A stretch of DNA of 40,130 nt from a virus, in IMG/VR virus record IMGVR_UViG_3300022542_000812, positions 1 through 40,130 of that record. One strand, given 5' to 3'. Position numbers and translations under genes: made by a program. Below are positions 12,338 through 21,186 of this stretch, piece after piece (the stretch's first letter is position 1; each line of letters opens with the position of its first letter). The notes beneath the pieces are model-generated. The model made no database searches and was not told the DNA's origin. It saw nothing but the letters and a program-made list of their open reading frames with translations.

Positions 12338-15118
12338 TTAAAATGGGATATCATCATTGATAACCCTGTTTTTCCAACTATTTATACATACTATCTCTTT
12401 GATATGAACCTTTCTCCAGCCCTTGTCAACTCTACCTGCAATCAGATACCAATCCTCACCTATTACACCTTTCTCAACAATATCAATAGCATTTATACTG
12501 TCAAATAACATTCTGCCAATAGAGCATATGATTGAGTCTGTATCATCTTCAAATGCAAGGTTTAGAAACTGGGTATTACTTTCTATCTTTTCTCCACCCC
12601 TTTTCTCAACTAATTCATATTCATTCAAATCTCTAAGGTTTACCTTTTCCAATCTGCCTATGAATACAATATTCTTTTTCATTCCTGTTTCAATAGTTTT
12701 TATTTCAATAGGCTTACTTTTAAAGCCATACTCTTTATAATTGTTTATTATATGCCCAAAAAAGGTTTTGCAAGGGAATATATCATCATAAGGGGTTGCA
12801 GGATTAGAAAGCATTTTATATACGCTAGGGGTAAAGCCTTTACCCTTTAATCGTGCGTTTATTATCCCCTTAGCCTTTTTATAGGCTATCCCTTTTATAT
12901 TCGTTAAACCGCCTAATAATTTACCATCTTTTATAGACCAGTTTACACCAGACTTATCAGCATCAACAGGTGTATATTCTATGCCCTCATTAAGTACCAA
13001 ATCCCTTAATAGCCTTATGGCACTTGTTTCATCTTTTGAGTTATTGAGAGATGCTGTATAAAATTCTAACGGATAGTGAGCCTTCATGTATGCGGTCCAA
13101 TAACTTATAAGCCCATAGGATACCGCATGAGATTTATTAAATCCCCAAGAGCCAAAAGTAATCATGTTTTCCCATACATACTCTGCCTCAATATCATCAA
13201 TACCTTTCTCTCTTGTTCCTTCCATAAAGTTGTTTTTAAACTTATTGAAAAACTCTTCACCTAATGATTTACTAGCAGCACGCCTAAGTGATGAAACATC
13301 TTGCCAAGATAGTCCACCATACTCTCTGCCAATAGTCATCAACTGCTCTTGATATACAATAATACCTAATGTCTCTTTTGTATTCTTTATTATAGCAGGG
13401 TGTTCTGATAAATATTTGACAGGTTCTTTACCTGAGTGTATCTTTGTGTATGCTAATGCACCACCTGAGTTCAATGGTCCTGGTCTACCAAGTGCAGTTA
13501 CAACAGTTATATCATTAAAATGAGATATTGTCATCTCTTTGACAAGTCCTTGTAAAGAATACCCTTCAAATTGAAATATGCCAGAAAACCTATAATCATT
13601 AAATATTTTAAAAGTCTCTTTGTCATTAAGTGGCATTTTATAAAAATCTTTATAACTAAAGCCTGCCAATTCAGATGATTGCTGCAATATGGTTAATGTT
13701 CTTAACCCTAGGCAATCAATTTTTAATAAATCAAGTTCTATGGCATCTGTCTTATCTAATTGAATTATATCATCTCTTGAGTTCACAGAGCCATAATTCC
13801 ACAAAGGAAGTGTTGAAACAATAACACCAGCCGCATGCTTTCCGCTATGAGAAGCATGTCCCTCTATCTCTGCTGTTAGAGATATATCAGGGTATTTTTC
13901 TACTATCTCTTTCCCTGGTTGTGTTGTATCAAATGTATCAGCTACACACATTGCGGCTCGTGCATCACCACCTGACCTTTCAAGTATAGCACCTTTGATA
14001 TCTTCAAGTTCATACTTTGGTATTCCAATAGCCTTGCCCATTAAGTCTATAGCGGATTTTGGCTTTAGTCTTGATATATTCGCAAGCGTTCTAACCTTTT
14101 CGCTTCCATATTTATTAGATAAATATTCAACAACTAAATGCCTTTTATCATCAGGAAAATCTATATCAATATCTGGCAAGTCAAATCTATTGACATCAAT
14201 AAATCTTTCAAATATTAAGCCATAAGGTATTGGGTCAATTTCTGTTATAGATAGTAAATAGCAAACTAGAGAGCCAGCAGATGAACCCCTACTTGGACCA
14301 ACCATCATAATATCCTTCGCATACCTAATCATATCAGCAGTTATTAAAAAATAATCAACATAATCCTTTTCCTTAATCAAGTCCAACTCTCTGTTAAGTC
14401 TTTTTCTATAGATAGGGTCATCTAAATCAATCTCTTTGCTCAATGCACCTAATACACATAGCATATCAATATCATGGTCACCTTCAAACTTAACCATTCC
14501 TGCTATTGGCAATTTTATTTCATGGTCAGGAGGTGTAAAATAACATATTATTGACCCCTCATATAACTCATATGATTCAGGATAATACTTAATCAATTCA
14601 TCAGTTGTAAGAATATGTCTAGGTTCTGTGCTATCCTCAAACATATAATTGTAATCATCACCCCTTTTTACTGAGCCTGCTATTGCTTGATATAGGGGAT
14701 AGTCTTCAGAGTTGATGTATCTGTTTAAAGGTATTTTATCACTTTCATAACTATTGCAATTCTCTAATTTTTTAATATCTGATTCAAAAACTCTTGGGAT
14801 ATAGTAGAACATATCATAAGACATCTCAACAAGTTTATTTAATTCAATTAACCCTTCCTGATTTAGTGCTACAATAACCATAGGTGTGTCACATCTTCTT
14901 TGCTTTGAGCCATCAGGGACTACATTCAAGCGGACACCAAATAAAGGCTTTATGTCTCTTTTTTTGCATTCCCTTTCCCATGTAACATGTCCAAAAGTAT
15001 TGCCATAATCAGCTATTCCTGCATAGGTATGACCCATACTTTTAATATTATCAAGTATGTCAGGTACTTTACCATAACATTTTTTAAAACTATACTCTGT
15101 CTGTAGTCCTATGTGCAT
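12338..15118 (-). CDS. DNA polymerase III alpha-type (C-family) replicative polymerase
   Basis: A 926-residue replicative polymerase, shorter than bacterial DnaE (about 1160). An N-terminal PHP domain (residues 1-80) precedes the palm. GPSRGSSAGSL (about 273) and PDIDIDF (about 313) carry the first two catalytic Asp residues, and LKIDCLGLRTL (about 466) carries the third. A helix-hairpin-helix region and an OB fold (about 790-880) follow. The HxH metal site of the PHP domain is replaced (GLQTEYS), so PHP exonuclease or pyrophosphatase activity is probably lost. The separate DnaQ protein encoded upstream presumably proofreads. GGAGGTAAAAGT precedes the ATG. T7-type phages usually carry an A-family polymerase, so this is unusual. 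Confidence 0.95.
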   Translation of the reverse strand: MHIGLQTEYSFKKCYGKVPDILDNIKSMGHTYAGIADYGNTFGHVTWERECKKRDIKPLFGVRLNVVPDGSKQRRCDTPMVIVALNQEGLIELNKLVEMSYDMFYYIPRVFESDIKKLENCNSYESDKIPLNRYINSEDYPLYQAIAGSVKRGDDYNYMFEDSTEPRHILTTDELIKYYPESYELYEGSIICYFTPPDHEIKLPIAGMVKFEGDHDIDMLCVLGALSKEIDLDDPIYRKRLNRELDLIKEKDYVDYFLITADMIRYAKDIMMVGPSRGSSAGSLVCYLLSITEIDPIPYGLIFERFIDVNRFDLPDIDIDFPDDKRHLVVEYLSNKYGSEKVRTLANISRLKPKSAIDLMGKAIGIPKYELEDIKGAILERSGGDARAAMCVADTFDTTQPGKEIVEKYPDISLTAEIEGHASHSGKHAAGVIVSTLPLWNYGSVNSRDDIIQLDKTDAIELDLLKIDCLGLRTLTILQQSSELAGFSYKDFYKMPLNDKETFKIFNDYRFSGIFQFEGYSLQGLVKEMTISHFNDITVVTALGRPGPLNSGGALAYTKIHSGKEPVKYLSEHPAIIKNTKETLGIIVYQEQLMTIGREYGGLSWQDVSSLRRAASKSLGEEFFNKFKNNFMEGTREKGIDDIEAEYVWENMITFGSWGFNKSHAVSYGLISYWTAYMKAHYPLEFYTASLNNSKDETSAIRLLRDLVLNEGIEYTPVDADKSGVNWSIKDGKLLGGLTNIKGIAYKKAKGIINARLKGKGFTPSVYKMLSNPATPYDDIFPCKTFFGHIINNYKEYGFKSKPIEIKTIETGMKKNIVFIGRLEKVNLRDLNEYELVEKRGGEKIESNTQFLNLAFEDDTDSIICSIGRMLFDSINAIDIVEKGVIGEDWYLIAGRVDKGWRKVHIKEIVCINSWKNRVINDDIPF

Positions 15119-15403: not shown

Positions 15404-15958
15404 CTATATTTTAATAATCCCTTTCTTGCATAACTCTATAAAGCACTTAGAGAGTGCATCAACATCTTGTTCAGCCCTATGTGCATCAAAGTCCTCCCCA
15501 AATAAATGATTATATAATTTTGTGAGACTAAGTCTATAGCCCTTTATTTTTAGTGTTTCTTGGACTGTGCATATATGCCTAGGTGGCCAAGGGAAATTCA
15601 AAACTTTATCAAGTCTTAGCAATTCATTTGCTAGCATAGACCTATCAAAAGGTAGATTGTGAGTAACCATAACATCAACCCCTAGAAAGAAATCAGTAAT
15701 TTCATCAACCTTATCTATGAACTTAGGTGCATCAACTAAATCCTTATCTGTTATTCCAGTTATCTTTGTTATAACTCTTGGCAAAGTCATAGGTGGCTTT
15801 AGAAAACCAGAAATAGTTTTAGCATCTTTGTTCCAAAAAGGGCTATTGTATTCAAATTTCCTAAAGCAATACTCAATAATATGAGGCTGTGAAGAAAGAC
15901 TTCTTATTTTTGGCTTTAAAAGACCTGTTGTTTCTGTATCAAATATTATTATTTTCAT
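15404..15958 (-). CDS. DnaQ-like 3'-5' exonuclease (polymerase epsilon-type)
   Basis: A 184-residue DEDDh exonuclease. ExoI is DTETTG (D7, E9), ExoII contains H100-N101 and D105 in THNLPFD, and ExoIII is H160-RAEQ-D165. This is the fold that proofreads for Pol III; the gene lies upstream of the phage alpha-type polymerase in the same operon, so the two probably work together. GGAGAAAAGAA precedes the ATG, which overlaps the stop of the carbamoyltransferase. It is also close in size to other phage DnaQ proteins that trim nucleic acids, but the pairing argues for proofreading. Confidence 0.93.
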   Translation of the reverse strand: MKIIIFDTETTGLLKPKIRSLSSQPHIIEYCFRKFEYNSPFWNKDAKTISGFLKPPMTLPRVITKITGITDKDLVDAPKFIDKVDEITDFFLGVDVMVTHNLPFDRSMLANELLRLDKVLNFPWPPRHICTVQETLKIKGYRLSLTKLYNHLFGEDFDAHRAEQDVDALSKCFIELCKKGIIKI

Positions 15959-17691
15959 TTCTTTTCTCCATACAAATCAAACATATACAATTCAATAGAA
16001 TGAATTGCCTTTCTCAAGTCTTCAACGCCATTCTTTTCTTTATGACGCATTAAATATTTCATGCTATGGGTAACAGCAACATCAAGATTATTCTCTCTTG
16101 TGAAAACGCTTAATGGAATTTTTTGATTATAATGTTTTCCACCTACTTGCCTGCTGTACGGGTCAAATGTTGGTATCTTATAAACTTTTATCCCATCAAA
16201 TAGATACTCAACACCATTCATGGAAGCCCATTCAATAGCAAGTTTATAGTCATTGAAAAACCCTTTCCCTAAATCATTAGCGGAAGTATTAAGTAAGCAC
16301 CCCCCTACACTATCAACAATTTCACCTACTATCTTGTCAGTAGAAACCATTGCCCTAACAGAACCATCTATGTGAACATATTCACCAGTACCTTTCGCAT
16401 AATTTTCAATAACCATGTCTTTATCATGAATCTCAATAGCAAAATTATCAGCAATGAATTTTTCATTAACAATAGGGGATACAGGTCTGTAATCCTCTCT
16501 TTTCTTGATTTTGTTCAATCTATCTTTAGCACCTTTGAATGGCTTGCAAATCAAAGAACGTTTCCCCAACGCCCTTGGCCCAATTTCACTTTTGCCAAAC
16601 AATGACATTACAATTTCATCATTTTTATTTAAGAAACTAGATATGTCACTAGATACACATTCCAAGCCATCAAGGGCAACTTCATTTTTCATCTGAAGAC
16701 CACAGAAACGATTATAAGTTATTCTATCATAAAGGTTATTTGCTTTAAAATGTGCACAAACCGCATTTATAGATGAACCACTATCGTTCATTACTACTGT
16801 TGTTTTAATTGAATATTTTCTATATATCATCGCATTCAATTTTATATTAAGAAAGCAACCACCAGAAACTGCTATTCTTGAACCACTTGGTATGATGTCT
16901 TCAATTGAATCTAGCATCAAATTGTTAATAACATAATGAATAGTTCGTATCGCACTCGCATCATTGGTGAAATCTAATAAAGTGCAAAATTTAAGAAAAT
17001 CATGTTCGTTGAATCCATAACCATTGTATTTAGTATAACCTCTTATTTTAGACTTAATTCTTACAACTTGCCTGTGGTCAACTTCCCCTAAAGCCGCATA
17101 TGACATGTAATTCCCTGGTATGTTATATTGACCCCATAATAGGTTATGCAAAGAGTGGCAATTCTTACCTGATATAACATCAGCATTCTTGAATTTCCCA
17201 AAATAATAACCCATTATACTATACACAAGACCTGTCAATTGAAATATTTCTTTTTTGAAAATATATTTACTCTCAAAGTATCTATTTTCATATATTATGG
17301 GAACAACACCCCCATCAAAAACAATAGAATAATCTGTTTCCCCGCTCATGAGATTAGTGCCTGCCATATGAGAATAAACATGACCATAACATACATATGG
17401 TATTTCAACACCATCTATGTTCAAAAACCCTTTCTTTGGGGAACTATCATTTTCACCAATATGATAATAATCAACATCTAAGTTGAATATTTTTTTAACA
17501 GAACCTGATATAATTATTAAGTCAATTTTGCTTACTGGATAATAAAGATACTTTACAAAGAAGTCAATTGATTTTGCCTTAGCATATCGCTCATTATTAT
17601 CTTTTTCCAATTCAACATGCTTAATCAAATGATTATCTTTAAATATAGATACGCTTGCATCATGTGTAAAATTTAATCCTATTATATTCAT
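15955..17691 (-). CDS. Carbamoyltransferase fused to a DUF3310 domain
   Basis: A 578-residue protein from ATG 17691 (TAATG overlap with the methyltransferase stop, GGAGAAAATATA before it; an in-frame ATG at 17727 is less likely). The NodU/CmcH/TobZ carbamoyltransferase family is shown by THDASV (9-14), VSGGCFLNIKLN, GPRALGKRS and KIKKREDYRPVSP (about 367-400). These enzymes make carbamoyl-adenylate and transfer the carbamoyl group to a hydroxyl. Residues of about 513-578 (GGKHYN, then KYLMRHKEKNG.EDLRKAI) match DUF3310, the domain I associate with T7 gp1.7-type nucleotide kinases. The fusion suggests action on a nucleotide. The likely substrate is a hydroxymethyl pyrimidine; this is inference. 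Confidence 0.88.
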   Translation of the reverse strand: MNIIGLNFTHDASVSIFKDNHLIKHVELEKDNNERYAKAKSIDFFVKYLYYPVSKIDLIIISGSVKKIFNLDVDYYHIGENDSSPKKGFLNIDGVEIPYVCYGHVYSHMAGTNLMSGETDYSIVFDGGVVPIIYENRYFESKYIFKKEIFQLTGLVYSIMGYYFGKFKNADVISGKNCHSLHNLLWGQYNIPGNYMSYAALGEVDHRQVVRIKSKIRGYTKYNGYGFNEHDFLKFCTLLDFTNDASAIRTIHYVINNLMLDSIEDIIPSGSRIAVSGGCFLNIKLNAMIYRKYSIKTTVVMNDSGSSINAVCAHFKANNLYDRITYNRFCGLQMKNEVALDGLECVSSDISSFLNKNDEIVMSLFGKSEIGPRALGKRSLICKPFKGAKDRLNKIKKREDYRPVSPIVNEKFIADNFAIEIHDKDMVIENYAKGTGEYVHIDGSVRAMVSTDKIVGEIVDSVGGCLLNTSANDLGKGFFNDYKLAIEWASMNGVEYLFDGIKVYKIPTFDPYSRQVGGKHYNQKIPLSVFTRENNLDVAVTHSMKYLMRHKEKNGVEDLRKAIHSIELYMFDLYGEKK

Positions 17692-18206
17692 TATATTTTC
17701 TCCAATTGAACCAATAATGCCAGACATCTTTCTTCAATGCCAATAATCAAACTCATGTTTATCTTAAATTCCCAGTCAATTCTATTCTTATTATAGTATT
17801 TGGTATTAAAAAGATTTTTAAAAGTATTTTCTGTGAATACATGCTTATGGTCTAAATCACTTCCATACAGATTACTTGTATAATAAGGAACACATATATT
17901 CATTATACCCCCTACTTCTAAAACTCTTTGTGCTTCTTGCAAAAAATAAATTGGTTTTTCTAAGTGTTCTATAAAGTGATAAGCATGTATCACCGCAACT
18001 GATTTATCATCATATGGGATTGCCTCAGCATCAGCATCAGCATCATAATCTGGATAATCTAGTCCTATTGCACCTTCAATTTCATGCTCACCACAACCAA
18101 TGTTTAGTTTTATTGCGTTGCATTCCCAATTTAAACATGTAGGGTCTTTTAATTCACCAACATCTCTTTTCATTCCTAGTTTAAAAAATTGTTCTATATT
18201 TCTCAT
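17691..18206 (-). CDS. SAM-dependent methyltransferase-like protein
   Basis: A 171-residue class I methyltransferase. Motif I is LNIGCGE (34-40), followed by GLDYPDYDADADAEAIPYDD with an acidic ribose-binding region, and AYHFIEHLEKP (motif IV-like). It lacks a large C-terminal target domain, and no DNA-methyltransferase PPY motif was seen, so the substrate is probably small or unknown. Start chosen at 18206 (AAGGAGAAATC before it) rather than 18236. It overlaps by a few bases the upstream 47-aa gene and by TAATG the carbamoyltransferase gene, so it is co-translated with them. Confidence 0.85.
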   Translation of the reverse strand: MRNIEQFFKLGMKRDVGELKDPTCLNWECNAIKLNIGCGEHEIEGAIGLDYPDYDADADAEAIPYDDKSVAVIHAYHFIEHLEKPIYFLQEAQRVLEVGGIMNICVPYYTSNLYGSDLDHKHVFTENTFKNLFNTKYYNKNRIDWEFKINMSLIIGIEERCLALLVQLEKI

Positions 18207-18346
18207 GATTTCTCCTTTTTGTGTTTTGGCCAACAAACATTATTTTCATCAATTAAGTACATTGCGTTAATATCTCTTACATACTTTTGAGATGATATGT
18301 ATCCTTCCTCATGTGCTCTGATTGCGGTTATTGTTCTTTGTTTCAT
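18203..18346 (-). CDS. Small protein between phosphatase and methyltransferase genes
   Basis: A 47-residue protein beginning MKQRTITAIRAHEEGYISS and ending PKHKKEKS. AAAAGGGGAATACT precedes the ATG at 18346, which overlaps the TAA of the phosphatase (TAATG); its own TGA overlaps the ATG of the methyltransferase. The tight coupling on both sides strongly supports translation. No domain recognised; the C-terminus is basic, so nucleic acid binding is possible. Confidence 0.75.
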   Translation of the reverse strand: MKQRTITAIRAHEEGYISSQKYVRDINAMYLIDENNVCWPKHKKEKS

Positions 18347-18798
18347 TAGTATTCCCCTTTTCTTATTTGTAATGCTGTAACACCTTGAGACCTGTACATT
18401 TTAATAATCTTACTTCTATCATCAAATGCAATAACAGGTATTCCTTTCTTGTGCAAATGCCTTATTGATTGAAGATTTTCTAATTTTATCACCTTATCAG
18501 ACCTATTATCAAGATGGTCTCTCATAAAGACCTGATGGCCTTCAATAGGTATGCAATTTTCTTGTAGCCATTTTTGAGTACTTATCCAAAAATTAAAAGG
18601 TCTTGCTGTGCTTATATACATTGCAGTATTTTCATCAGCTTTAATATTGTGAAACAATTGCTTTGCATCATTATAAACAGTATCTCCCATCAATAATGAA
18701 TTATACTTATCATGATTACCTTTTAGTATATGCTTAATTCTGTGTTGAGTATTGCATAAAGTTTCATCAAGGTCAAATATTGCTATTCTAGTTATCAC
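18346..18798 (-). CDS. HAD phosphatase, PNK 3'-phosphatase-like
   Basis: A 150-residue HAD phosphatase with a GTG start (GGAGGACAATGTG), overlapping the ThyX stop. Motif I is FDLDETLCNT with nucleophile D9 and D11, motif II is STARP, and MRDHLDNRSDKVIK is the typical PseT/Pnk phosphatase signature before motif IV (FDDRSK). These domains remove 3' phosphates from nucleic acid ends or act on nucleotides. It is a stand-alone phosphatase without a kinase domain. Inside the ThyX-carbamoyltransferase cluster it may instead act on a nucleotide; the choice between repair and metabolism cannot be made here. Confidence 0.85.
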   Translation of the reverse strand: MITRIAIFDLDETLCNTQHRIKHILKGNHDKYNSLLMGDTVYNDAKQLFHNIKADENTAMYISTARPFNFWISTQKWLQENCIPIEGHQVFMRDHLDNRSDKVIKLENLQSIRHLHKKGIPVIAFDDRSKIIKMYRSQGVTALQIRKGEY

Positions 18799-19535
18799 AT
18801 TGTCCTCCCATCTTTAGCAACAGGATTAGCAACATGATTGCATTCCCCCCATTCATTTGCAATCCTTCGTTTTGTTTCAACTGATGAAACATGAGTATAT
18901 TTCTGAATAGGGCATTCTTTATATCTAGGGAATGCACATGCACCAGTTTGCACACAATTAACTTCTATGAAATCAGCGAAGTAAGGGTGAACAGCAACAA
19001 CTTCTGCTTTCATTGCTTTGAATACAGATTGATATTCCCCCTGTGTTCTTACACATAAGCGGACTAATGCTGTTTGATTCAGTGTTCTTAAATCTGTTCC
19101 TACTATGATATTAGTTTTTACATTAGTTGGCAAAATAGCCCTGCAATCTTGAATATCACATCTTGAATCTTTAGCAATATCAGTATAAACCCTCATTTGG
19201 TCATGTAGCGTTTGATCAACAGGAGTGCAACCTGTTGGAACAAAGCCATTATTACTTGCGTCAATAGTTCTTTGGCTTTCTTGTGCATAAGACTGGGTTC
19301 TAGTCCTAACAAGCTGATGGGTAAATGCTCTTGATACACCTTTTATTTCAAAAGTATATTTTACAAATTCCCAAGATGACTTTATAGTATCTCTCATATA
19401 TGCTAGATGTTCCAGTTTTTCATCTAATGGTGTATCTTTTAACTCTTTAAGTGTTTTTCCACCAATTCTAGTGCTTTTTGTATAAAGCAATAAATCAAGA
19501 GCGTTCTTTTGATAGTCAATCAATTTAACTTCCAT
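18795..19535 (-). CDS. thyX: ThyX-family flavin-dependent thymidylate synthase (variant motif)
   Basis: A 246-residue ThyX-family protein. The signature RHRxxSxNxxSxRY appears as R77-T-R-T-Q-S-Y-A-Q-E-S-Q-R89-T90; the conserved His, Asn and Tyr are replaced by Thr, Ala and Thr. The usual reaction is FAD-dependent transfer of a methylene group from methylene-tetrahydrofolate to dUMP. The Cys-rich tail (VNCVQTGACAFPRYKECPI) is also unusual. It lies between the FAD oxidoreductase and the PNK-like phosphatase, upstream of the carbamoyltransferase, so it may be a variant that hydroxymethylates a pyrimidine nucleotide. Thymidylate synthase remains the default call. AAAAGGAGAATGAT precedes the ATG. 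Confidence 0.85.
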   Translation of the reverse strand: MEVKLIDYQKNALDLLLYTKSTRIGGKTLKELKDTPLDEKLEHLAYMRDTIKSSWEFVKYTFEIKGVSRAFTHQLVRTRTQSYAQESQRTIDASNNGFVPTGCTPVDQTLHDQMRVYTDIAKDSRCDIQDCRAILPTNVKTNIIVGTDLRTLNQTALVRLCVRTQGEYQSVFKAMKAEVVAVHPYFADFIEVNCVQTGACAFPRYKECPIQKYTHVSSVETKRRIANEWGECNHVANPVAKDGRTM

Positions 19536-19586
19536 ATCATTCTCCTTTTGATCTCACTATTTAGGCTAGTGGTAAGCCTTCTGTAA

Positions 19587-20477
19587 TTATAAAAAATATC
19601 CTTTGTTCTCTATCACTTTTTTTATAATCTTTGCGTCTTTCACCACATCATCTAATTGTATATTCCTCCAAGTTGCAAATCTACCTATTGAATATATATT
19701 AAATTCTTTGGTTGCCCATCCAATAAATTCTTTTCTTTCCCTATCATCCAAAGGAACTAACTTTCCATATTTTTGATATGAACTAGAAATAATGGACGAA
19801 ACATCATTTAAATTAAGACCAAATGACCTTAGAACAAAATCAATTACATTCTCACTTTCTTCAACACACTCAATTATGAGAACATCTTTTGTTATTGACG
19901 CTCTGTATAAATTAGTTTGTCTTTTAGTATAATATATAGTCTGATAAACATTGCAATTTTTAATACAGTATGTTGAAACATGTATTTTTTTATATATAAA
20001 TTCTGATTCATTATTATATCCTAGTGTATCCATAAGAATAGGCATTGGCATAGTTGTAATTAGTGGAATGCCTTTATCAAATGTTTTTCTAATTTTAAAA
20101 TCATTATCAAATTTGATGTTTAAATTTTTTGAAAGATATTTTTGTAGATTGAAATCACATATAAATCTTTTCTGTTTAGTTGTATTACTTATAGACCTAG
20201 TTGTTATTCCACCTGTAACTTTTTTACTATATTTATTATTTTGCTTTATGCTATTCACAACTAATTTGTCGTCAATAATATCCTTATAGACAGTTACTAA
20301 TTTAAAATCTTTATTGGTTAAAACACCAACTGAATTGGTTTTAAATCTTAATACTGCATTGTGGTTTTCAGGCATTGTTTTTCTTCTTTCATATACTGTT
20401 ACATCACTATGCTCAAAGACTTTAGCGGTAATAAGACCTGCTAAACCAGCTCCAATTATATCAATTTTTTGTTTCAT
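19587..20477 (-). CDS. FAD-dependent oxidoreductase
   Basis: A 296-residue flavoprotein. The Rossmann motif IIGAGLAGLI (G9-x-G11-x-x-G14) followed by VTVYERR is the classic FAD/NAD(P) binding start of amine-oxidase and UGM-like enzymes. The C-terminal YSIGRFATWRNIQLDDVVKDA is the second FAD-contact segment. The substrate is unknown; it is too short for a monoamine oxidase but long enough for a small oxidoreductase or dehydrogenase. In the same operon as ThyX and carbamoyltransferase it could supply reduced flavin or oxidise a base side chain; this is inference. AAAGGATTTTT precedes the ATG. Confidence 0.85.
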   Translation of the reverse strand: MKQKIDIIGAGLAGLITAKVFEHSDVTVYERRKTMPENHNAVLRFKTNSVGVLTNKDFKLVTVYKDIIDDKLVVNSIKQNNKYSKKVTGGITTRSISNTTKQKRFICDFNLQKYLSKNLNIKFDNDFKIRKTFDKGIPLITTMPMPILMDTLGYNNESEFIYKKIHVSTYCIKNCNVYQTIYYTKRQTNLYRASITKDVLIIECVEESENVIDFVLRSFGLNLNDVSSIISSSYQKYGKLVPLDDRERKEFIGWATKEFNIYSIGRFATWRNIQLDDVVKDAKIIKKVIENKGYFL

Positions 20478-20604: not shown

Positions 20605-21186
20605 TTAACCCATTGCGTTCTTATAAACTGCATTCACAAGTTTCGCAATACCACGATACAATGATGCGTTTTTAACAACATTAGCAGAAACTTCACTACC
20701 TTCAGTACGGTCAGGTTGAGTATTTATATACTCATCAACCTCTTGGTCATCCATATTAGGCTTTGCAGCAAGTGCTTTCTGGAATTTTGCCATAAACCCT
20801 GATTGCCCCTGGCCATTACCACCACGCGGTTTAGTGAAGCACTCAACGCCGTTTGACTTAGCCCATGCACGTACTGAACCTGATGCTGAAGCACTACTTA
20901 CTTTTGCTATTTTAACAATAGCATCAACTGCCAAATTGAAATTACTTTCAAGGGTTAAATCTAAATCTTTACAAGAACTTCCAATGGCGTTTAACTTGTC
21001 AGCACGATTTAGGCGTAATCCACCATCAATCATCAATTTGTTAAAAATTGAATTAACAGTAGAAAACTTTGCACCAGCCTTTAGCAATAGCATTTTGATA
21101 TCATCATCACTTTTTTGATTCTCAACAGCCTTTGTAAACACTTCTACAAATTTTACATCAACTACATCATTTTTTTCATCTTTCAT
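20605..21186 (-). CDS. Unknown protein, abundant early-gene candidate
   Basis: A 193-residue protein that I do not recognise. It is helical with a Gly-rich linker (KPRGGNGQGQSG, about 120-131) between an N-terminal Ala/Lys-rich helical domain with SSASASGSVRAWAKSNG, and an acidic then Ala/Lys C-terminus. No signal or membrane segment. It has its own near-perfect sigma70 promoter (21246-21274) and a strong hairpin after it, so it is probably made at high level. A DNA-binding or recombination-mediator role would fit the neighbours (nuclease, RecA-like, helicase), but no motif proves it. AAGGGGATAAA precedes the ATG. Confidence 0.8.
   Translation of the reverse strand: MKDEKNDVVDVKFVEVFTKAVENQKSDDDIKMLLLKAGAKFSTVNSIFNKLMIDGGLRLNRADKLNAIGSSCKDLDLTLESNFNLAVDAIVKIAKVSSASASGSVRAWAKSNGVECFTKPRGGNGQGQSGFMAKFQKALAAKPNMDDQEVDEYINTQPDRTEGSEVSANVVKNASLYRGIAKLVNAVYKNAMG

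What the first reader, a model, noticed from the sequence alone, without database searches (positions are those of the whole stretch)
15955..20477. Candidate pathway for a carbamoylated or otherwise hypermodified pyrimidine
Five genes lie together with overlaps or short gaps: FAD oxidoreductase, variant ThyX, PNK-type phosphatase, SAM methyltransferase and carbamoyltransferase-DUF3310, plus a 47-aa protein. A route in which ThyX makes a hydroxymethyl pyrimidine and the carbamoyltransferase decorates its hydroxyl would be chemically sensible. Carbamoyltransferases of this family act on hydroxyls. I recall reports of phage carbamoyltransferases linked to modified cytosine, but cannot verify them here. 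The phage might thus protect its DNA from host nucleases.
Basis: inference. Interest (0 to 1): 0.75.

Follow-up and report, generated by a model that had tools for sequence, protein, structure and literature searches.

The report
Phage pyrimidine hypermodification operon with carbamoyltransferase
This phage carries a cassette of enzymes that most likely makes a disguised DNA letter (probably a thymine replacement capped with a carbamoyl group) to dodge bacterial DNA-cutting defences, and the same core enzymes, with different capping enzymes, turn up in well over a hundred phage sequences examined here.

Summary
In detail: six closely packed minus-strand genes at 15955-20477 encode a flavoprotein, a variant ThyX, a PNK-type HAD phosphatase, a 47-aa protein, a SAM methyltransferase and a carbamoyltransferase-DUF3310 fusion. 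The operon continues into DnaQ and DnaE. Comparison with about 180 phage loci shows a conserved core (UDP-galactopyranose-mutase-like flavoprotein, ThyX-like enzyme, HAD, DUF6378 or DUF3310, DnaQ, DnaE; order kept in 127 of 128 loci) with exchangeable caps: SDR/glyoxalase-like, methyltransferase, sulfotransferase, radical SAM or carbamoyltransferase. A search with the carbamoyltransferase alone found 12 loci, all in this setting. The ThyX-like enzymes have lost four conserved active-site histidines, so they are probably not plain thymidylate synthases. Published data on core-bearing relatives fit DNA modification: JG024 DNA resists ScaI, NdeI and BsaI; Wifceviruses resist most restriction systems. 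JG024's pattern (NdeI-resistant, SacII-cut) points to thymine rather than cytosine. Best guess: the ThyX-like enzyme makes 5-hydroxymethyl-dUMP and the carbamoyltransferase makes 5-carbamoyloxymethyl-dU; known 5-carbamoyloxymethyl-dC (eLife 2021) is the rival product. No nucleoside has been measured; chemistry and acceptor are inferred. New variant of a known kind.

The parts
19587..20477 (-). Flavoprotein (phrog_4828), UDP-galactopyranose-mutase-like fold; core gene
   Evidence: phrog_4828 2e-63; AlphaFold2 pLDDT 93.8; Foldseek best hits UDP-galactopyranose mutases, E 5e-11, TMq about 0.6; found near ThyX-like genes in well over 100 loci
18795..19535 (-). ThyX-like enzyme; proposed dUMP (or dCMP) hydroxymethylase; core gene
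   Evidence: Thy1 5e-26; misses the TIGR02170 ThyX equivalog cut-off, 72.3 vs 87.9 bits; family-wide loss of four active-site His positions
18346..18798 (-). PNK-type HAD phosphatase; core gene, proposed nucleotide phosphatase
   Evidence: HAD_PNKP 2e-15, phrog_415 1e-29; HAD gene in 98 of 128 core loci
18203..18346 (-). 47-aa protein of unknown function
   Evidence: Open frame with ribosome-binding-site-like stretch and 1- and 4-bp overlaps with neighbours; no convincing family match
17691..18206 (-). SAM-dependent class I methyltransferase (171 aa from the ATG; listed ORF begins at a TTG at 18236); tailoring gene
   Evidence: Methyltransf_11 9e-8, phrog_6636 3e-45; homologues in 28 of 128 core loci with at least 22 changes on the tree; start
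15955..17691 (-). O-carbamoyltransferase with C-terminal DUF3310 domain (first ATG at 17727, likely start 17691); tailoring gene
   Evidence: Carbam_trans_N and _C; Foldseek TobZ 1.5e-20; module-specific NTSANxxGxGFF-type motif
15964..16158 (-). DUF3310 domain of the carbamoyltransferase fusion (residues 524-588 of the 590-aa reading)
   Evidence: phrog_5839 4.5e-10, phrog_236 5e-8; family HMM 90 bits; same domain in T7 gp1.7 nucleotide kinase, 4.5e-23
15404..15958 (-). DnaQ-like 3'-5' exonuclease, same operon (context)
   Evidence: RNase_T 5e-16, phrog_192 2e-37; overlaps the carbamoyltransferase by 4 bp
12338..15118 (-). DnaE-like DNA polymerase III alpha, same transcription direction (context)
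   Evidence: Same position as annotated DNA polymerase III alpha genes in related phages; homologous to them

Best explanation
The operon is a DNA-base hypermodification cassette on a phage-specific platform. Proposed working: the ThyX-like enzyme, helped by the UGM-like flavoprotein, puts a one-carbon unit from methylene-tetrahydrofolate on C5 of dUMP but lets water rather than hydride finish the reaction, giving 5-hydroxymethyl-dUMP. The HAD phosphatase (with a DUF6378 partner in most relatives, DUF3310 here) adjusts the nucleotide pool. DUF3310, shared with T7's nucleotide kinase gp1.7, handles or activates the modified nucleotide. The fused carbamoyltransferase, using carbamoyl phosphate and ATP, caps the hydroxyl as 5-carbamoyloxymethyl-dU, before or after incorporation by the phage's own DnaE/DnaQ polymerase. 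The methyltransferase is a second, optional cap. The result would protect virion DNA from restriction. Shown: gene content, family membership, conserved order, cap exchange, restriction of this carbamoyltransferase subfamily to the cassette, altered ThyX active site. Inferred: every chemical step, the pyrimidine (T over C) and the protective role in this phage.
For: Families; core order in 127 of 128 loci; exchangeable caps, with minimum changes on the flavoprotein+ThyX tree of MTase 22 for 28 loci, SDR 22 for 36, sulfotransferase 4 for 4, carbamoyltransferase 4 for 6; radical SAM and sulfotransferase in the same slot; carbamoyltransferase-only search returned 12 loci, all in module context and all with the NTSANxxGxGFF motif; window enzyme groups with them, 99% SH-aLRT, apart from the 5hmC enzyme (long-branch warning); ThyX-like family lost H53, H59, H79 and H178 (T. 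maritima numbering) but kept R78, R80 and R174; DUF3310 in T7 gp1.7 and fused to HAD in Cronobacter phage Ss1. Published: JG024 DNA cut by SacII and XbaI but not ScaI, NdeI, BsaI (sites present); yeast-made JG024 DNA rebooted only in restriction-deleted hosts; Wifceviruses resistant to nearly all tested RM systems without known mechanism (EcoRI and EcoRV sites present); carbamoylation of a hydroxymethyl pyrimidine is proven chemistry.
Against: No nucleoside analysis of any core-bearing phage was found. The JG024 and Wifcevirus data are from relatives with other caps; NdeI and BsaI resistance is 'data not shown', and the authors suggest methylation. XbaI (TCTAGA) cuts JG024, so not every T-containing site is blocked. 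Wifceviruses remain sensitive to EcoP1_I. The reboot result is also expected for any yeast-made DNA, and DMS3 showed a similar effect. No dTTP-removing enzyme was identified in the window. The only tested phage carbamoyltransferase of this type acts on 5hmdC and ignores 5hmdUTP. Roles of the HAD, MTase and flavoprotein are guesses.
Confidence: 0.5

Rival explanations
1. Same kind of pathway but on cytosine: the ThyX-like enzyme hydroxymethylates dCMP and the carbamoyltransferase makes 5-carbamoyloxymethyl-dC, as already described for another phage enzyme.
For: The only proven enzyme of this type makes 5cmdC and does not act on 5hmdUTP (PMC8670742); altered ThyX residues could change base preference.
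Against: ThyX enzymes act on dUMP (established knowledge). The window's carbamoyltransferase is in another subfamily. Core-bearing JG024 DNA is cut by SacII (CCGCGG) but not NdeI (CATATG, 10 sites); NdeI fully cuts T4 glucosyl-5hmC DNA but fails on ViI T-modified DNA and on phosphorylated 5hmdU DNA.
Confidence: 0.22
2. Ordinary nucleotide supply and repair: ThyX makes dTMP, the PNK-type phosphatase mends DNA ends, and the carbamoyltransferase and methyltransferase are unrelated cargo such as sugar or metabolite modifiers.
For: The ThyX fold and its key arginines are retained; ligase, exonuclease and polymerase lie nearby; many phage carbamoyltransferases are annotated as Nol-like accessory genes.
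Against: Four active-site His positions lost across 167 ThyX-like proteins; the carbamoyltransferase subfamily was found only in this module, 12 of 12 loci; several unrelated cap enzymes swap in the same region.
Confidence: 0.15
3. The cassette modifies something other than DNA, such as tRNA, a free nucleotide signal or a host metabolite used in counter-defence.
For: The 5hmC carbamoyltransferase also acts on RNA and free nucleotides (PMC8670742); MnmG and TrmFO show that flavin/folate enzymes can act on tRNA uridines (established knowledge).
Against: Fixed linkage to the replicative polymerase and its exonuclease; restriction resistance of core-bearing relatives.
Confidence: 0.08

Closest known systems
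5-hydroxymethylcytosine carbamoyltransferase from a phage metagenome (MetaGPA, eLife 2021, PMC8670742)
   Same: Same O-carbamoyltransferase superfamily (Carbam_trans_N/C), in a phage, next to a C5-modifying thymidylate-synthase-type gene.
   Different: That one sits with ThyA (PF00303), makes 5cmdC and is inactive on 5hmdUTP. This one sits with a ThyX-like enzyme and a flavoprotein, carries DUF3310, has a different C-terminal motif (NTSAN..G.GFF against NTSFN..G.PI), and is only distantly related (phmmer E about 2e-6).
T4 hydroxymethylcytosine/glucosyltransferase and SPO1-type hydroxymethyluracil pathways
   Same: Logic of a thymidylate-synthase-type hydroxymethylase followed by an optional cap on the hydroxyl (established knowledge).
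   Different: Those use ThyA-fold hydroxymethylases; here the candidate has the unrelated FAD-dependent ThyX fold with a partner flavoprotein, and the caps differ.
Canonical ThyX (FAD-dependent thymidylate synthase, TIGR02170)
   Same: Same Pfam family; R78, R80 and R174 kept.
   Different: H53, H59, H79 and H178 replaced; below the equivalog cut-off.
UDP-galactopyranose mutase
   Same: Overall fold of the flavoprotein; best Foldseek hits.
   Different: TM about 0.6, 12-15% identity, shorter protein; function not transferable.
T7 gp1.7 nucleotide kinase
   Same: Shares the DUF3310 domain with the C-terminus of the window's carbamoyltransferase and with standalone or HAD-fused DUF3310 in sister phages.
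   Different: The window has only the ~65-aa domain; kinase activity untested.

Membership tests
O-carbamoyltransferase (NodU/TobZ/CmcH type) | Carbam_trans_N and Carbam_trans_C domains above curated cut-off | tested here: met
   60.4 vs 24 bits and 72.9 vs 27 bits; Foldseek TobZ 1.5e-20
O-carbamoyltransferase (NodU/TobZ/CmcH type) | HxxxH metal site, DG and ExGPRALGxRS motifs | tested here: met
   H116 and H120, D138-G139 and the GPRALG region conserved in alignments A6 and A8
5hmC carbamoyltransferase subfamily (MetaGPA) | Clusters with the tested enzyme rather than with others | tested here: not met
   Groups with module enzymes, 99% SH-aLRT, away from the 5hmC enzyme (long branches); different C-terminal motif
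5hmC carbamoyltransferase subfamily (MetaGPA) | Activity on 5hmdC | not testable with these tools
   Needs enzyme assay
Canonical ThyX (TIGR02170 equivalog) | Score above curated cut-off | tested here: not met
   72.3 vs 87.9 bits
Canonical ThyX (TIGR02170 equivalog) | RHR(x7)S motif | tested here: not met
   RTR(x7)S in the window; middle residue T/N/S in 156 of 167 relatives, H in 10
ThyX superfamily (PF02511) | Pfam Thy1 match above cut-off | tested here: met
   92.2 vs 24.8 bits
ThyA-type dCMP/dUMP hydroxymethylase | PF00303 thymidylate synthase fold | tested here: not met
   Only Thy1 matched
DUF3310 (T7 gp1.7 type) | Pfam match above cut-off of 24 bits | tested here: inconclusive
   17.1-20.8 bits in the window, but the homologous domain in L106 passes at 31.4 and a family HMM gives 90 bits
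HAD/PNKP phosphatase | HAD_PNKP domain above cut-off and DxDxT motif | tested here: met
   57.8 vs 27.6 bits; FDLDET at residues 8-13; substrate untested
DNA methyltransferase | Match to a DNA methyltransferase family | tested here: not met
   Only Methyltransf_11/23/25-type families and phrog_6636

The most novel reading that the evidence does not exclude
A widespread, apparently undescribed DNA-hypermodification platform built on a ThyX-derived hydroxymethylase and a UGM-like flavoprotein rather than ThyA, found in Pbunavirus/Wifcevirus-type phages and Ss1-like podophages, with interchangeable caps (carbamoyl, methyl, possibly sulfate, SDR and radical-SAM products). In this phage it would make 5-carbamoyloxymethyl-deoxyuridine, a base not reported in the literature I could search.
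Probability: 0.42. Interest if true: 0.87.

Novelty: new variant of a known kind. Interest (0 to 1): 0.72.

Why it matters
[quoted passage not shown] It would add a second enzyme fold (ThyX) to the known routes to hydroxymethyl pyrimidines, and a set of exchangeable caps, some of which (the sulfotransferase) would be of a kind I know of no example of on phage DNA bases. The key experiment, nucleoside mass spectrometry on DNA of phages already in collections, is simple.

Tried and rejected
A close search of IMG/VR with the carbamoyltransferase alone found no relative; the alignment-based search succeeded. Tested whether DUF3310 and DUF6378 are the same family by profile comparison: no support. 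My first labels treated the ~100-aa genes as phosphatase pieces; separate profiles showed they are DUF6378-like. Compared the two truncated window ends with the tail protein of VA-RY-3 and Ss1 to see whether they are one gene: no significant match. Searching relatives by genome kinship is not possible for a virus record. A sister carbamoyltransferase in a fecal contig (MT837218) has no core genes beside it on its short contig. Papers on base hypermodification by Iyer and by Lee/Weigele are not held, so prior mention there was not checked. Considered that the MTase is a restriction-type DNA methylase: no DNA methylase family matched.
Full report
Observation. The minus strand of 15955-20477 carries a 296-aa flavoprotein, a 246-aa ThyX-family protein, a 150-aa PNK-type HAD phosphatase, a 47-aa ORF, a SAM methyltransferase and a carbamoyltransferase with a C-terminal DUF3310 domain. 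Junctions are tight: a 51-bp gap, then 4-, 1-, 4-, 1- and 4-bp overlaps if the methyltransferase starts at 18206 and the carbamoyltransferase at 17691, both of which fit the sequence better than the first possible starts. The operon continues into a DnaQ-type exonuclease, and a DnaE-type polymerase follows. The window is a virus record and resembles the podophages Vibrio VA-RY-3 and Cronobacter Ss1 in gene order, with primase, terminase, connector and head genes.

A conserved core. tblastn against annotated phages found the flavoprotein and the ThyX-like gene as near neighbours in Pbunavirus, Wifcevirus, Carpasinavirus, Myosmarvirus, Kylevirus and podophages, followed by a PNK/HAD gene, variable genes, DnaQ and DnaE. 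Profile searches of IMG/VR returned several hundred matches, of which the best 80 of each were kept. In 128 loci with all three anchors, the order flavoprotein, ThyX-like, DnaE holds in 127, always on one strand; HAD is found in 98, DUF6378 or DUF3310 in 109, DnaQ in 119.

Exchangeable caps. Among the core genes lie SDR and glyoxalase-like genes, methyltransferases of the window's family, sulfotransferases (Sulfotransfer_3 5.8e-7 in VA-RY-3), radical SAM-SPASM and FkbM methyltransferases, and carbamoyltransferases. On a flavoprotein+ThyX tree the smallest number of changes is 22 for 28 methyltransferase loci, 22 for 36 SDR, 14 for 28 glyoxalase-like, 4 for 4 sulfotransferase and 4 for 6 carbamoyltransferase. 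A fixed core with rapidly swapped group-transfer enzymes is what a hypermodification pathway under immune pressure would look like (inference).

The carbamoyltransferase belongs here. Searching IMG/VR with the carbamoyltransferase alignment alone returned 12 loci, six of them on contigs not seen before. All carry DnaE and the exonuclease and/or other core genes; in two (L190, L194) the flavoprotein was not seen, L190 being a short contig that begins just before the gene. The query alignment came from module loci, which biases the search toward them, but no instance outside the module appeared. All share NTSANxxGxGFF where the tested 5hmC enzyme and a cyanophage enzyme have NTSFNxxGxPI. A tree groups the window's enzyme with them, 99% SH-aLRT, apart from the 5hmC enzyme, with a long-branch warning. 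The predicted fold matches TobZ at 1.5e-20 (model mean pLDDT 76.9, DUF3310 part poorly modelled).

The ThyX-like enzyme is altered. Against T. maritima ThyX (1kq4 and relatives), the position of H53 is I in 163 of 167 module proteins, H59 is F in 161, H79 (RHR) is T/N/S in 156, and H178 is R in 158, while R78, R80 and R174 are kept in 166 or 167 (T. maritima numbering partly from my own knowledge). The window protein misses the ThyX equivalog cut-off. From established knowledge, ThyX passes through a state that can be trapped as 5-hydroxymethyl-dUMP, so a hydroxymethylase is a short step; whether these changes cause it is not shown.

Other proteins. The flavoprotein model is confident (pLDDT 93.8); the closest solved folds are UDP-galactopyranose mutases, which bind uridine nucleotides, but the similarity is at fold level only. 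DUF3310 also ends T7 gp1.7, annotated a nucleotide kinase, and in Ss1 is fused to HAD, so it moves within the cassette. DUF6378 and DUF3310 are not detectably related. The methyltransferase matches only small-molecule-type families.

Published behaviour of relatives. JG024 carries the core genes. Its DNA is cut by SacII and XbaI but not ScaI, NdeI or BsaI, though 2, 10 and 5 sites exist. A PB1-like phage was only partly cut by EcoRI and HindIII while five other phages were cut. Yeast-made JG024 DNA gave phage only in restriction-deleted hosts. Wifceviruses resist all tested RM systems except EcoP1_I with no known mechanism; Bas100 has 19 EcoRI and 5 EcoRV sites. NdeI cuts T4 glucosyl-5hmC DNA fully but not T-modified ViI DNA or phosphorylated 5hmdU DNA, so JG024's pattern favours modified T. 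These data concern relatives, and part is 'data not shown'.

Comparison. Carbamoylation of a hydroxymethyl pyrimidine is known: MetaGPA showed 5hmC to 5-carbamoyloxymethyl-C beside a ThyA homologue, inactive on 5hmdUTP. I found no paper joining ThyX, phage and hydroxymethylation or hypermodification in this sense in the searched library; subscription papers were not covered. Verdict: real; most likely a base-hypermodification operon; new variant of a known kind; the exact base is open, with T favoured over C.

Noticed in passing
L003:21766-22521 (Vibrio phage VA-RY-3); also L119, L130: A sulfotransferase-family gene sits in the cap region of the same cassette, suggesting a sulfated base.
   Followed up: partly
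L118:6662-7648 and 14 other loci: Radical SAM-SPASM proteins in the cap region, sometimes with an FkbM methyltransferase (L113, L152, L165, L173).
   Followed up: partly
L073:2448-2951 and 17 other loci: Proteins resembling the pyrimidine dimer DNA glycosylase family (PF03013, 3.9e-5) inside the cassette, usually between the ThyX-like and HAD genes.
   Followed up: no
L004:14395-15075 (Cronobacter phage Ss1): HAD-DUF3310 fusion; the corresponding gene in Vibrio phage PVA7 is annotated phosphoheptose isomerase, probably wrongly.
   Followed up: partly
window 20605-21186: Gene just upstream of the flavoprotein, conserved in podophage relatives (VA-RY-3), with a weak Lsr2 DNA-binding-domain match (0.011).
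   Followed up: no
GU815091 6792-7292 (JG024): Pbunaviruses carry a homologue of the window's methyltransferase far from the core cassette, so core-only loci may still have a distant cap gene.
   Followed up: no
L151: Two ThyX-family genes in one locus, flanking a DUF932-type protein and others.
   Followed up: no
PMC11990801 (Wifcevirus section): Wifceviruses are sensitive to EcoP1_I but resistant to EcoCFT_II despite similar site numbers; a base-specific modification might explain it.
   Followed up: no
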